From: a virus
Length of the DNA stretch: 43,882 nt
Direction: 5' to 3' (one strand)
Virus record (IMG/VR): IMGVR_UViG_3300033552_000019
Span: 1 to 43,882 of that record
Position 1 is the first letter of the stretch. Every line of letters begins with the position of its first letter. The position numbers and the translations under genes are program-made. The notes below the pieces were generated by a model. That model did no database searches. It had not been told where the DNA came from and saw nothing but the letters and a program-made list of their open reading frames with translations. Below, one piece after another: positions 28,497 to 41,442 of the stretch.

Positions 28497-29966
28497 CTAT
28501 CTTTTGCTTTCATGTAATACAAAACCTTTTAATTTGCCGACTGCCATGTTGAATTTATTCCAAAGTTTTTCGTCAATAAATTCAAAGTGAACTGTGCCTT
28601 TTTTGAAGCCTTTGATTCTGAAATATTCCCAGTTGTACCAAGTACCCCACTCCCTATTTATTTTATCTGAACTTGAATTGTAATTATAAAACTCTTCGGG
28701 ATTACCTTCTTTATCTTCGCCCACCCATGCATTGTTTACAAATTGTGTGAGCTTGCTTTTCTTGTCAAAATTGTCTCCATTAAGCAAACACAGGACACGC
28801 ATCAAGTCTTCGATAATATCAATATTAGAATTGCCATATGAATGTCTCATATGCATTCGTCCACTTCCTGCGTAGTCTGTATCAGTCATGTATGGAAATA
28901 TAAACTTGCGATTAACCAGGTAATGTCCGTTTGTTTTCCATCCTTCCAAATTCATTCTATTGTCGTCATGGTGAGCAGTAAGTCTATCGAACACATCAAG
29001 TATAGCTTTGTCCATTCTGCTTCCTTGTGTGCCAACAATGACGTCAAGCATCTTGTATATGTTTGGCATTGAGAAGGGTATTTTTTCTTGAGTCTCGACA
29101 AACTTATTTATGTCATCCTTTACAGATTTAGTCATGTACTTATCCATGTTCATTTTTTTGAACACGAAATTCCATGCGCTTTTTTGAAGATCCTTTTTGA
29201 AATCGGCCCGGGTTACAGGGGCTTCTTCGCTTGTCATTATCATTGACAATTTTGAATTGAAGAAGCTCTTTGTTAAATCATTCATTTTAACAGCCAATTC
29301 AAGTTGATGATCGAACAATTTGACTGCACCTACATATCGGTTAACAACATCACGAACGAAGTTATAAGGCATAACTCCTATGTATTGATCTTCTTCGACT
29401 TCTTCGGTAAAGAATCCTTCCCATTCGTTTTCATTACTACCCGTTTTTGGCTTGGTGAATTTTATTAAACCAATCTCACACATGGTTTTGCGCTCTGCAT
29501 CTTCAAATGAACTGCCTATATTTACGAATGTTCCTAGGTTTTTAATGTGTGAAAGTATTTGCAATCTCTTGCGACTATAAGCATTCATTCCCATCTCTGC
29601 GTTGCATAGCGAAACGATTACACAACCTTCCGGTGCTATTTCCAGAGCGTGTAAAATGTGGTCTTCTTCATTACTGAACGGTGGGTTCATGAAGATAAAA
29701 TCAACGTGCGAAATTTGATCGGACGAAATTTGTAAGAAGTCAGAACCGATTAGCTTATGCCCTTTGGATTTTAAAATTGACTGTAATTCGTCTTCAATTT
29801 CAGAGGCTAACGTTTTGCCACATAGTAAATTTCCACAGTAATCAAGTATTGCACCACTGCCTGCTGAAGGGTCATAAATTATTTTACTTTCAATATTATA
29901 ATCCTCAACCATCATTTGAATTACATGTGGCGGTGTTGGAAAGAAATCTTTTCCGAATAATCCCAT
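28497..29966 (-). CDS. Adenine-specific DNA methyltransferase with DUF4942-like C-terminus
   Basis: 489 residues. SAM-binding motif I is YDPSAGSGAI (31-40), and the catalytic motif IV is NPPF (94-97), which marks an N6-adenine methyltransferase. The remaining region with FDHQLELAVKMNDLTKSFFN, AWNFVFKKMNMDKYMTKSV and NSGNIDIIEDLM-like YGNSNIDIIEDLMRVLCLL plus FKKGTVHFEFIDEKLWNKFN resembles the DUF4942 tail. No restriction enzyme gene is nearby, so it is an orphan enzyme, probably protecting phage DNA or affecting regulation. Confidence 0.88.
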   Translation of the reverse strand: MGLFGKDFFPTPPHVIQMMVEDYNIESKIIYDPSAGSGAILDYCGNLLCGKTLASEIEDELQSILKSKGHKLIGSDFLQISSDQISHVDFIFMNPPFSNEEDHILHALEIAPEGCVIVSLCNAEMGMNAYSRKRLQILSHIKNLGTFVNIGSSFEDAERKTMCEIGLIKFTKPKTGSNENEWEGFFTEEVEEDQYIGVMPYNFVRDVVNRYVGAVKLFDHQLELAVKMNDLTKSFFNSKLSMIMTSEEAPVTRADFKKDLQKSAWNFVFKKMNMDKYMTKSVKDDINKFVETQEKIPFSMPNIYKMLDVIVGTQGSRMDKAILDVFDRLTAHHDDNRMNLEGWKTNGHYLVNRKFIFPYMTDTDYAGSGRMHMRHSYGNSNIDIIEDLMRVLCLLNGDNFDKKSKLTQFVNNAWVGEDKEGNPEEFYNYNSSSDKINREWGTWYNWEYFRIKGFKKGTVHFEFIDEKLWNKFNMAVGKLKGFVLHESKR

Positions 29967-38076: not shown

Positions 38077-38787
38077 TTATTTATTCAAAAGATGATTTAT
38101 GTATGCAATTCCTTTTTGATGAACTAATATTTTTGTGTTCACCCTGTCTTTCCCGTTTTTATCAATAAATACATTTTCGACAATTCTGAAATATCCTGCA
38201 TTGAGGTATTTTTGATAAGGCAAACTTTCATTCGTGAGTATATTTTTTTCTCGTAAAAATTTAAACAGATTATTTCTACCTATTTTTTTGTTGTTCAAAA
38301 CCTTCGCAGTCTCTTCCATCGTAATGCCTTCTTGGCAATCCTTAACAGAGTCATAGAAAGAAGCTTTTGGAATAAGCGCATTAATTTGTTGTTGCTTTTC
38401 TTCAATCTGTTTAGCTTGATTTGCTGCCAGTAATAAAGCGTCTGAAAATGATTGTGGGATTGAATGAATAGGTTGCAATCTTCTTTCGCACTCTATAAAG
38501 TATAGGCGCGCCTGTTTGCCTTTTTCGGTTCTTTGTAGCATCGCTATCTCTTTTGCACAATCAATTGTTAATGCAAAGTCGGATTTGTTTGTGCCTCCAA
38601 TTCCGTTGTGCGCTTTAACGAATTCGTGAACCGCCTTAAAGTCAACACCTTCCGAAAATCCGTATTCGAACATTCTTTTTGCCCATTGCGAAAAGTGATC
38701 ATCCGTATGAAGCCATTCGTGCAGTTCTCTAGCGGAAACAACTTGTTTCCCTCCGTTAGATGTTCTTATCTTTATTAATTCGTCCAT
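38077..38787 (-). CDS. Phage antirepressor (AntA-like N-terminus, KilAC C-terminus)
   Basis: 236 residues. VVSARELHEWLHTDDHFSQW followed by GFSEGVDF and DFALTIDCAKEIAMLQRTEK and GKQARLYFIECERRL is the AntA/BRO-type N-terminal domain (1-100). The C-terminal part (about 120-236), with SFYDSVKDCQEGITMEETAK and KKIGRNNLFKFLREKNILTN then SLPYQKYLNAGYFRIVENVF, is a KilAC domain. Antirepressors bind and disable repressors during induction. It is one of the first genes of the early operon, beside the repressor. Confidence 0.9.
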   Translation of the reverse strand: MDELIKIRTSNGGKQVVSARELHEWLHTDDHFSQWAKRMFEYGFSEGVDFKAVHEFVKAHNGIGGTNKSDFALTIDCAKEIAMLQRTEKGKQARLYFIECERRLQPIHSIPQSFSDALLLAANQAKQIEEKQQQINALIPKASFYDSVKDCQEGITMEETAKVLNNKKIGRNNLFKFLREKNILTNESLPYQKYLNAGYFRIVENVFIDKNGKDRVNTKILVHQKGIAYINHLLNK

Positions 38788-38995: not shown

Positions 38996-39062
38996 TATTG
39001 TAATACAACAATACGCCAATGTTTATTTAAAATCAACACTTGTTTACTAAATGTGCACAAGT
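38996..39062. promoter_or_regulatory. Divergent operator region between early operon and repressor
   Basis: Two inverted repeats are present: TATTGT (38996-39001) / ACAATA (39008-39013), and ACTTGT (39038-39043) / ACAAGT (39057-39062), the latter overlapping the palindrome TGTGCACA (39052-39059). Both sit between the divergent starts at 38968 and 39077, where repressor operators and both promoters must be. TAAATGTG (39048-39055) is a weak -7 match for the plus direction. Confidence 0.55.
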
Positions 39063-39076
39063 ATTTATTCATAACT

Positions 39077-39391
39077 ATGTATATGTCTGAAGGTGAAATA
39101 TTAAAAAAAGCTGTTCGAGTTCAATTTGATAATATGGATGAAGCGTCGAGCTTTTTAAAAATAAGCAAAACTACACTTCATAAGTATTTTAACAAGGAAA
39201 AGCTTCCTACTGACTTTGTGGATTTCGTAAATGATAAAATGGGATTAAGTATCCGCAAAGACCAGAAGAGATATGCGATACAGGCCGTTTTGGCTCATGA
39301 AAACAAGGATGATGAAATTGCTATATTAAAAAAGCAAATTGAAGCAATGGAAGCAAAGATTGACTTATTAATAAAACTATACAAAAAATAA
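39077..39391 (+). CDS. Lysogeny repressor candidate
   Basis: 104 residues from ATG 39077; earlier codons (GTG 39053) fall inside the operator. SEGEILKKAVRVQFDNMDEA, then SSFLKISKTTLHKYFNKEKL is a helix-turn-helix (about 20-45). The C-terminal 30 residues (IAILKKQIEAMEAKIDLLIK) form a coiled coil for dimerisation. It lacks a LexA/CI-type self-cleaving peptidase domain, so induction probably depends on the antirepressor. It reads away from the early operon, as a CI-like gene should. Confidence 0.72.
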   Translation: MYMSEGEILKKAVRVQFDNMDEASSFLKISKTTLHKYFNKEKLPTDFVDFVNDKMGLSIRKDQKRYAIQAVLAHENKDDEIAILKKQIEAMEAKIDLLIKLYKK

Positions 39392-39576: not shown

Positions 39577-40029
39577 ATGATCGGAATATTAGTAATCATA
39601 GTGATGCTCATTTTGCTAGCAATTGCAATACCAATAATTACAGTTTTATATTATAATTCTAAAATATCCGGCAGGTGTTCAGTTTGTAATGAAGAAATAA
39701 ATTATTCAAATAGCAAAAACAATGTATGTTCAAAGTGTTGGGCTGAATTAAAGAAACGAGTTGTCGTAAACAAAGAAATATATCATGTTAACATAAATGC
39801 AAAAATAATTTATACAGACAGGGATGGTGAAATTACTGAAAGGAAGGTTAGGATGATTTCGTTTTTCCAAACAACACACGACTATTCAATAAAGTGTTAT
39901 TGCTATTCTAAAAAAGCAGGAAGGACATTTCATCTATCTAAAATATCAAACATGATAGACACGGATACCGGAGAAGAAGTTAAATTAATAAAAGATTATC
40001 TTTTTGAAAAGGCAAGAACTAACATATAA
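39577..40029 (+). CDS. Membrane-anchored zinc-ribbon and WYL-like protein
   Basis: 150 residues. One membrane segment (residues 2-26, VMLILLAIAIPIITVLYY), then a zinc ribbon with CSVC (34-37) and CSKC (51-54). The C-terminal domain (about 74-136) has YTDRDGEITERKVRM, SIKCYCYSKKAGRTFHLSKI and NMIDTDTGEEV, the shape of a WYL sensor domain (the conserved RTF-hxxI and DxxTGE pattern). WYL domains bind nucleic-acid ligands and control defence or stress regulators. Located between repressor and integrase, it is probably made in lysogens and could serve in phage exclusion or signalling. Confidence 0.6.
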   Translation: MIGILVIIVMLILLAIAIPIITVLYYNSKISGRCSVCNEEINYSNSKNNVCSKCWAELKKRVVVNKEIYHVNINAKIIYTDRDGEITERKVRMISFFQTTHDYSIKCYCYSKKAGRTFHLSKISNMIDTDTGEEVKLIKDYLFEKARTNI

Positions 40030-40032
40030 AAT

Positions 40033-41238
40033 ATGCCAGTAACCCTTAAAGCAATTATCAAAGGTCGTGCGAATGCAGATAACACACATACGGTGTTTGT
40101 CCGCATTACGAAGGACCGCGACTATATCGTTCATTCCGCAGGGGTACGCATTGATAAGAAGCACTGGAACGAAAAGGGAAACTACGAGAAGCGGAACTGG
40201 ATACGCGCAACGCTAGGCAATTCGGAACAACAGAATGTTACTATAAAGAAGATCATTGATAAGGTTACAGATATCACTTCTAAGGATCCAGATGTAACAC
40301 TTGCGCAAATAGGTATTAAGATTTCCGGAAAGTCGGATTACGACTTTATTCAGTTTTGGAAAGATGATATGATTCAAAGAAATTTGCGCTTATCTCCTAC
40401 TTCAAGGGACAAGTATAAAAGTCAAATTAATAATTTCATTGCCTTCACAAAAAACAAACCAGTACCATTCTCAGATTTAACTTACCAATTCATTCAAAAA
40501 TATTATGCATGGATGTTAACGGAAAACAAAGCGGAATCAACGGCTCTTAAGGCAATGGCATTTTTAAGGACCATTGTTATAGAATCTGTTAAGTCGGGAT
40601 ATATCAAGCATGCAGAAAACCCATTTTTATACTTCAAAATAAAAGAATATAAAGTAAACAAGGTTCGACTGAATTCTGATGAAATATTGATTTTTGAAAC
40701 CAAAGAAGCGAAAACAATAACAATGCAGGCGTCCGTTCACTTATTCTTAATGCAATACTACAATGCAGGTGCACGTGTCTCAGATGTCATTCAAATGCGT
40801 TGGGAGGATGTAATTAATGACAGGTGGTTTTATACAATGGGAAAAACCGACCGAATGAAAAATATTAAACTTAGCACCAAGGCTCTTGAAATACTTAAGA
40901 TATATGGATACGGCATAAAGAAAACAGGGTACGTATTCCCATTTTTAACAGCCGAAAATGTGAAGGCTGCTGGGGATCGGTTTCATAAGAAGATTCAATC
41001 CGTTACCGCACAGGTCAATTTTAACATAAAGGAGTTCGCCTTGATCAACGAAATAAATAAAACGATATCCACACACACCGCACGCCATTCATTCGCTGAT
41101 GCAGCTCGCAAGATATCAGGCGATGTATATGCAATATCAAAAGCTTTAGGACACTCAAAAATATCTACTACAGAAAAGTACCTCGCTAGTCTTGATGATG
41201 GATCTGTTGACGAGTTAATGGATAAGATAAATTTATAA
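40033..41238 (+). CDS. int: Tyrosine recombinase / phage integrase
   Basis: 401 residues. A beta-rich arm-binding N-terminal region (to about 60) is followed by a SAM-like core-binding domain (about 100-200; FIQFWKDDMIQRNLRLSPTS) and a C-terminal catalytic domain. The catalytic residues are all visible: Arg248 (NAGARVSD), Lys271, His348 and Arg351 (HTARHSF), His374 (LGHS) and the nucleophile Tyr383. It starts 3 nt after the preceding gene, which suggests joint expression, and is followed by repeat-rich DNA expected of attP. Confidence 0.95.
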   Translation: MPVTLKAIIKGRANADNTHTVFVRITKDRDYIVHSAGVRIDKKHWNEKGNYEKRNWIRATLGNSEQQNVTIKKIIDKVTDITSKDPDVTLAQIGIKISGKSDYDFIQFWKDDMIQRNLRLSPTSRDKYKSQINNFIAFTKNKPVPFSDLTYQFIQKYYAWMLTENKAESTALKAMAFLRTIVIESVKSGYIKHAENPFLYFKIKEYKVNKVRLNSDEILIFETKEAKTITMQASVHLFLMQYYNAGARVSDVIQMRWEDVINDRWFYTMGKTDRMKNIKLSTKALEILKIYGYGIKKTGYVFPFLTAENVKAAGDRFHKKIQSVTAQVNFNIKEFALINEINKTISTHTARHSFADAARKISGDVYAISKALGHSKISTTEKYLASLDDGSVDELMDKINL

Positions 41239-41239
41239 T

Positions 41240-41442
41240 TGTTGGAACAATGTTGGAACAAAAAAATATAGCGTACTGATAATCAATACGCTATATGCTT
41301 AAATGTAGAGAGGAAGACTCTATGAATAACATTACTCAATTAAGCATTACGATTAAAATACAGGCATTTAGCAGTATTTTACATATTATATTAACCATAA
41401 TGCTTAATCATATTTAAAGAAATGTTGGAACAATGTTGGAAC
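41240..41442. repeat. attP candidate: direct and inverted repeats after the integrase
   Basis: TGTTGGAACAATGTTGGAAC occurs exactly at 41240-41259 and 41423-41442; each is a tandem of an 11-bp unit TGTTGGAACAA. Inside lies an 11-bp inverted pair ATTAAGCATTA (41339-41349) / TAATGCTTAAT (41398-41408), and a related AATGCTTAAT is found at 41574-41583. This arrangement resembles arm-type integrase and accessory sites flanking a core. The core site itself cannot be named without the bacterial partner. Confidence 0.6.

What the first reader, a model, noticed from the sequence alone, without database searches (positions are those of the whole stretch)
39577..40029. Membrane, zinc-ribbon and WYL-like protein in the lysogeny module
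A single membrane segment, a CxxC-CxxC zinc ribbon and a C-terminal domain with an RTF-hxxI and DxxTGE pattern typical of WYL domains are joined in 150 residues. WYL domains usually sit in transcription regulators that sense single-stranded DNA or nucleotides. A membrane-bound version between repressor and integrase could act in exclusion of other phages or report on incoming DNA. I know of no described example of this fusion.
Basis: partly seen in the sequence, partly recalled or inferred. Interest (0 to 1): 0.6.

Follow-up and report, generated by a model that had tools for sequence, protein, structure and literature searches.

The report
Membrane-anchored WYL protein beside phage repressor
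A small gene between the repressor and integrase of this temperate phage encodes a nucleic-acid-sensing (WYL) domain tethered to the inner membrane; similar genes sit beside the repressors of many unrelated phages, which suggests an undescribed way for a prophage to sense or block other infecting phages.

Summary
ORF 39577-40029 (150 aa) has an N-terminal membrane helix, a CxxC-x13-CxxC knuckle pair and a C-terminal WYL domain. AlphaFold2 gives the WYL barrel pLDDT about 95, and the 17 best PDB fold matches are all WYL proteins (PafBC, BrxR, CapW). A profile built from membrane-WYL relatives, window left out, scores the window at 70 bits, against 35 bits for HTH-WYL regulators.

Membrane-anchored, cytosol-facing WYL proteins, often extended by TerB or BRCT, recur in temperate phages and often lie directly downstream of the repressor. 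In 186/P2-like Yersinia phages the gene is a clean 581-bp insertion between cI and int, absent from a same-genus phage. In the P2-like family the WYL part evolves under strong purifying selection and the membrane part drifts. I found this architecture described nowhere in the papers I could search. The central zinc knuckle is so far seen only in the window.

Best reading: a lysogeny-operon cargo gene whose WYL domain senses nucleic acid at the membrane, most likely to exclude or abort other phages. Fold, architecture and cargo behaviour are shown; ligand and function are inferred. A role in prophage induction is the main rival.

The parts
39577..40029 (+). Gene for the 150-aa membrane / CxxC-CxxC / WYL protein
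   Evidence: ORF; fold and family
39580..39660 (+). Codons of the N-terminal membrane helix (residues 2-28); positive residues follow it, so the rest is predicted cytosolic
39676..39738 (+). Codons of the CxxC-x13-CxxC zinc-knuckle-like segment (residues 34-54)
   Evidence: 0.17% of shuffles; low pLDDT
39778..39981 (+). Codons of the WYL (Sm-like) barrel, residues 68-135, with R89, C109, K112, R116, H119, K122 and the DTGE signature
39988..40020 (+). Codons of the C-terminal helix after the DTGE strand (residues 138-148), also present in the P2-like relative's model
39053..39391 (+). Small HTH plus coiled-coil protein, likely the repressor (plausible ATG at 39077)
   Evidence: HTH_17 about 18 bits, below cut-off 27; role inferred from position
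40033..41238 (+). Tyrosine integrase, starts 3 nt after the WYL gene stop
   Evidence: Phage_integrase 66.4 bits
38077..38787 (-). AntA/KilAC antirepressor on the opposite strand
   Evidence: ANT 86 bits, AntA 78.5 bits
39535..39568 (+). Upstream copy of an imperfect 34-nt direct repeat that flanks the gene (possible insertion scar)
   Evidence: 24/34 identical, 12 nt exact; 0.1% of shuffles and 0 of 2869 real-window controls reach it
40023..40056 (+). Downstream copy of that repeat, covering the WYL stop codon and the integrase start

Best explanation
The gene is an accessory cargo gene (moron) of the lysogeny operon of a temperate tailed phage, probably of a Bacteroidota host. Its product is anchored in the inner membrane by one helix and presents a cytosolic zinc-knuckle-like linker and a WYL domain that keeps the basic pocket used by other WYL domains to bind single-stranded nucleic acid. 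Expressed with the repressor in the lysogen, it most likely binds nucleic acid (or a nucleotide signal) produced by an incoming phage at the membrane and blocks that infection, by superinfection exclusion or by arresting the infected cell. Shown: coding sequence, membrane segment, WYL fold, membership in a phage-borne membrane-WYL subfamily, repeated linkage of that subfamily to repressors, and insertion/absence behaviour in close relatives of one branch. Inferred: topology, metal binding, co-expression in the lysogen, ligand, anti-phage outcome.
For: WYL fold. Pocket: PafB ssDNA-binding residues R181, R204, R208, R211, R214 (PMC11804915) map by constant offset 92 to R89, K112, R116, H119, K122 (inferred from spacing; an ungapped 42-residue alignment to PafBC of Arthrobacter supports the register). 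Membrane anchoring recurs with a positive cytosolic flank in eight relatives. Repressor linkage: P2-like CI-29 nt-gene-9 nt-int, L027 CI with S24 domain 3 nt upstream, L098 CI with S24 1 nt upstream, L082 HTH_3 0 nt, L089 15 nt. Soluble WYL-BRCT genes follow CI in PV94 and PHL101. Cargo behaviour: Yersinia phages 201.16 and 56.17, same genus, are 94.8% identical up to one point and resume after a 581-bp insert that is the gene; in phage 186 cI and int overlap; vB_YenM_324 has another ORF there. Purifying selection on WYL (dN about 0.04-0.10, dS 0.6-1.2) with a faster membrane/linker part (dN 0.28-0.46) in the more diverged pairs. Precedents: the cI-int gap of K139-like P2 phages is an antiviral hotspot (PMC9122126); membrane Sie proteins lie between integrase and repressor in lactococcal phages (PMC7693887).
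Against: No phenotype or expression data. Position can reflect co-expression for any purpose. No known defence partner next to it in the window. The window gene has no close relative, so presence/absence could be shown only in the P2-like branch. The HTH ORF is a weak repressor call. No relative has the central zinc knuckle.
Confidence: 0.45

Rival explanations
1. It is a lysogeny/induction regulator: the WYL domain senses single-stranded DNA from host DNA damage, or another stress signal, and through contact with the repressor or integrase tunes induction or excision.
For: Tight downstream linkage to repressors in many phages. WYL regulators DriD and PafBC sense ssDNA in DNA-damage responses.
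Against: Phages 201.16 and 56.17 have nearly identical cI and int and only one carries the gene, so the switch does not need it. The linked regulators belong to different types (CI with Phage_CI_C, CI with S24, HTH_3, Rha), which argues against one protein partner. A membrane anchor is an odd place to control a DNA-bound repressor.
Confidence: 0.22
2. It is a Cam1-like membrane effector: ligand binding to the WYL domain assembles the membrane helix into a pore that depolarises the infected cell.
For: Similar size and layout to Cam1 (206 aa, one N-terminal helix, linker, cytosolic sensor; PMC10808066). CARF and WYL play parallel sensing roles (PMC4012209).
Against: The window helix has no charged residue of the kind that lines the Cam1 pore (D17). 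The membrane part of the P2-like family drifts in sequence and the helix number varies from 1 to 3, which suits a tether better than a pore.
Confidence: 0.13
3. It is a lysogenic-conversion gene unrelated to other phages, for example linked to a Ter-like envelope or stress response of the host.
For: Several relatives carry a TerB domain after the WYL domain. One relative (G152) lies on a chromosomal stretch with no phage genes nearby.
Against: The window copy has no TerB domain, and most relatives lie in viral contigs, many next to phage regulators.
Confidence: 0.12
4. Decaying or non-functional ORF.
For: AT-rich (29% GC against 36% for the window); no close relative found.
Against: Intact frame, all pocket positions basic, high-confidence fold, 70-bit match to the membrane-WYL subfamily, whose P2-like branch is under purifying selection.
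Confidence: 0.05

Closest known systems
WYL-domain transcription factors (PafBC, DriD, BrxR, CapW)
   Same: WYL Sm-like barrel with the same basic pocket positions; best fold matches in the PDB
   Different: They have N-terminal HTH DNA-binding domains and, in PafBC, a WCX domain; the window protein has a membrane helix and neither
3TM-WYL proteins between cI and int of 186/P2-like phages (Yersinia phage vB_YenM_201.16, 'hypothetical protein')
   Same: Membrane anchor, cytosolic WYL, DTGE strand and C-terminal helix, location between repressor and integrase
   Different: Three membrane helices, disordered linker, no zinc knuckle
TM-WYL-TerB and TM-WYL-BRCT proteins of phages (L006/L017, L082, L085, L089, L098, L027)
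   Same: Single or double membrane helix followed by the same WYL subfamily, often beside a repressor
   Different: Carry TerB or BRCT after the WYL domain; L098 has a CxxC-CxxC segment at its C-terminus instead of before the WYL domain
Sie2009-type superinfection exclusion proteins
   Same: Small membrane proteins encoded between integrase and repressor (PMC7693887)
   Different: Homology was not tested; no WYL domain reported; DNA-injection block not tested here
Cam1 (CARF-membrane effector of type III CRISPR)
   Same: Analogous layout of one N-terminal membrane helix plus cytosolic nucleotide sensor (PMC10808066)
   Different: CARF (Rossmann) not WYL; CRISPR signalling; conserved pore-lining Asp missing in the window helix

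Membership tests
WYL domain superfamily | Sm-like SH3 beta-barrel similar to solved WYL domains | tested here: met
   pLDDT 94-96; 17 best PDB hits all WYL proteins, probability 0.93-1.00; best E 1.3e-3
WYL domain superfamily | Conserved basic residues and a cysteine in the ligand groove | tested here: met
   R89, C109, K112, R116, K122 in the alignment; R89, C109, R116 invariant across A5; pattern described in PMC4012209
WYL domain superfamily | Pfam PF13280 above the curated cut-off (a detection threshold, not a structural feature) | tested here: not met
   13.3 bits against 21.8 for the window; several relatives of the same subfamily pass it
WYL transcription factors (PafBC/BrxR/CapW type) | N-terminal HTH DNA-binding domain | tested here: not met
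   N-terminus is a membrane helix; no HTH hit
Phage membrane-WYL subfamily (defined here) | N-terminal membrane segment, then WYL with DTGE strand and a final D-Y/W-L helix | tested here: met
   (70.0 bits with a profile that leaves the window out; 35.1 bits with an HTH-WYL profile); for the same elements in the P2-like relative
Phage membrane-WYL subfamily (defined here) | Gene next to the lysogeny regulator or integrase | tested here: met
   integrase 3 nt downstream; upstream HTH gene 185 nt away and only weakly supported
Zinc ribbon | Two CxxC knuckles that bind zinc | tested here: inconclusive
   Knuckles present; best Pfam hit DZR_2 18 bits against cut-off 27; low pLDDT; metal not testable
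Superinfection exclusion / anti-phage system | Blocks other phages in a lysogen or from a plasmid | not testable with these tools
   needs plating assays
Cam1-like membrane effector | CARF sensor and a conserved acidic pore-lining residue in the membrane helix | tested here: not met
   window helix IGILVIIVMLILLAIAIPIITVLYY has no acidic residue; sensor is WYL, not CARF

The most novel reading that the evidence does not exclude
Membrane-tethered WYL proteins linked to repressors form a widespread, undescribed class of prophage-encoded infection sensors, a WYL counterpart of CARF-membrane effectors, and the window protein is a compact version with an added zinc knuckle.
Probability: 0.35. Interest if true: 0.75.

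Novelty: new variant of a known kind. Interest (0 to 1): 0.55.

Why it matters
WYL domains are known mainly as sensors inside transcription factors that control DNA-damage responses and defence systems. A membrane-anchored form carried by many unrelated temperate phages next to their repressors would be a new deployment of that sensor. It gives a defined, testable set of genes for prophage-mediated exclusion, including a P2-like pair of phages that differ there by the presence or absence of the gene.

Tried and rejected
Relatives of a virus record cannot be drawn and no Bacteroidota genome handle could be obtained. Alignment A6 found nothing in IMG/VR. The P2-like gene is absent from the E. 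coli genome set at blastn sensitivity. MT835503 hit H5 is an ordinary HTH-WYL-WCX regulator. PHROG 2561 is labelled 'DNA ligase', but its phage members seen here are WYL-BRCT proteins, so a ligase role was rejected. Weak Pfam hits to Prominin, LNS2, Ly49 and ADK lid are taken as chance or composition. Among 369 gammaproteobacterial genomes only two clear membrane-WYL proteins were identified (including the query's own genome); the readable remainder were mostly soluble HTH-WYL regulators. A pore model was considered and ranked low for lack of polar helix residues and drift of the membrane part.

Full report
1. Observation. The ORF at 39577-40029 is intact and 150 aa long. Residues 2-20 are strongly hydrophobic, modelled as one helix 2-28, with positive residues on the C-terminal side, so the remainder is predicted cytosolic. 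Two CxxC knuckles lie at 34-37 and 51-54; the arrangement appears in 330 of 200,000 residue shuffles. The segment is modelled poorly (pLDDT about 50-62), so zinc binding is inferred only. The gene is AT-rich, 29% GC against 36% for the window. The Bacteroidota host is inferred from the integrase similarity to Bacteroides phage and gut phage records and the lack of a Shine-Dalgarno-like stretch before the gene.

2. The C-terminal domain is a WYL domain. Pfam WYL is only 13.3 bits, but AlphaFold2 on 11 related rows gives residues 71-140 a pLDDT of 94-96 and the 17 best PDB fold matches are PafBC, BrxR and CapW chains, with DriD further down. A sequence profile of relatives finds PafBC in the PDB at 6.6e-6. 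A profile of 21 membrane-WYL domains that leaves the window out scores it 70.0 bits; one of 10 HTH-WYL regulators gives 35.1 bits. One row of the first profile (L090) was cut at the wrong place and is misaligned. The family therefore has a subfamily marked by the WYL barrel, a DTGE strand and a final helix.

3. The pocket looks functional. In mycobacterial PafB, R181, R204, R208, R211 and R214 are needed for ssDNA binding (PMC11804915). With a constant offset of 92 they fall on R89, K112, R116, H119 and K122, all basic. This register is inferred from spacing and is supported by an ungapped alignment to Arthrobacter PafBC.

4. Relatives and context. The P2-like Yersinia phage vB_YenM_201.16 carries a 3TM-WYL protein between cI and int. 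IMG/VR and one sequenced genome give further members at the same place. A pattern scan of IMG/VR gave 23 contigs, most of them with membrane-WYL proteins, many with TerB. A recognisable regulator lies just upstream in several: CI with S24 in L098 (1 nt) and L027 (3 nt), HTH_3 in L082 (0 nt), CI in the P2-like group (29 nt in L011), a near-cut-off CI in L079 (77 nt), HTH_3 two genes upstream in L095, Rha in L086 (96 nt). L089 has an unassigned HTH-like ORF 15 nt upstream. Others (L081, L087, L090, L092, L093) show no such neighbour, and L017 does not. The survey is not an unbiased count, and some loci are duplicates (L079/L080; L006/L017/L024/L083; L013/L022). Soluble WYL-BRCT genes follow CI in Vibrio phage PV94 and Mannheimia phage PHL101.

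5. Cargo behaviour. Phages 201.16 and 56.17 belong to one genus. Their DNA is 94.8% identical up to L003:2622 / L039:1991 and resumes at L003:3204 / L039:1991, so a single 581-bp insert carries the gene. In phage 186 cI and int overlap by a base, and vB_YenM_324 has a different ORF in the gap. In the P2-like gene the WYL part has dN 0.04-0.10 against dS 0.6-1.2 between the diverged pairs, and the membrane/linker part dN 0.28-0.46. In the window an imperfect 34-nt repeat flanks the gene (24/34, 12 nt exact); shuffles reach it in 0.1% and none of 2869 real-window controls did. The test was made after seeing the repeat.

6. Mechanism. Shown: fold, membrane segment, subfamily, recurrent linkage, insertion/absence in one branch. 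Established elsewhere: WYL domains bind ssDNA in PafBC and DriD; the cI-int gap of K139-like phages holds antiviral systems (PMC9122126); membrane exclusion proteins lie between integrase and repressor in lactococcal phages (PMC7693887). Inferred: expression in the lysogen, a nucleic-acid ligand near the membrane, and exclusion or arrest of competing phages. The main rival is a role in induction; near-identical phages with and without the gene speak against it but do not exclude it.

7. Known or new. Makarova and colleagues list WYL fusions to HTH, nucleases, helicases, BRCT and TerB and mention a membrane-associated CARF, but the passages I read name no membrane-associated WYL (PMC4012209). 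Searches for WYL with membrane, exclusion, BRCT or TerB found no description. The 2012 Ter paper that they cite was not available to me and may mention such proteins. I class the finding as a new variant of a known kind.

Noticed in passing
window 41237-41259 and 41420-41442: Near-identical 23-nt direct repeats, each made of two TTGGAAC units, on both sides of an inverted repeat (41339-41408) just after the integrase; possible attP arm-type sites.
   Followed up: no
window 41266-41296: Strong hairpin right after the integrase gene (15-nt arms, 93% complementary); scored as a terminator-like site on the - strand.
   Followed up: no
window 38077-38787: AntA/KilAC antirepressor on the - strand, facing away from the lysogeny genes.
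   Followed up: no
window 28497-29966: N6-methyltransferase-like protein with a DUF4942 C-terminus.
   Followed up: no
L098 113-1135 (- strand): TM-WYL-TerB protein with a C-terminal CPHC...CQNC zinc-ribbon-like tail, the only other CxxC pair seen with a membrane-WYL protein.
   Followed up: partly
L031 3465-3983, L032 3573-4055 (phage genomes): Phage WYL-BRCT proteins annotated 'DNA ligase' appear misannotated through the BRCT domain; no ligase domain was found in L031.
   Followed up: partly
L100 8378-9870: HTH-repressor-like gene overlapped by 4 nt by a WYL-TerB-like gene without a clear membrane helix, another repressor-WYL pair.
   Followed up: no
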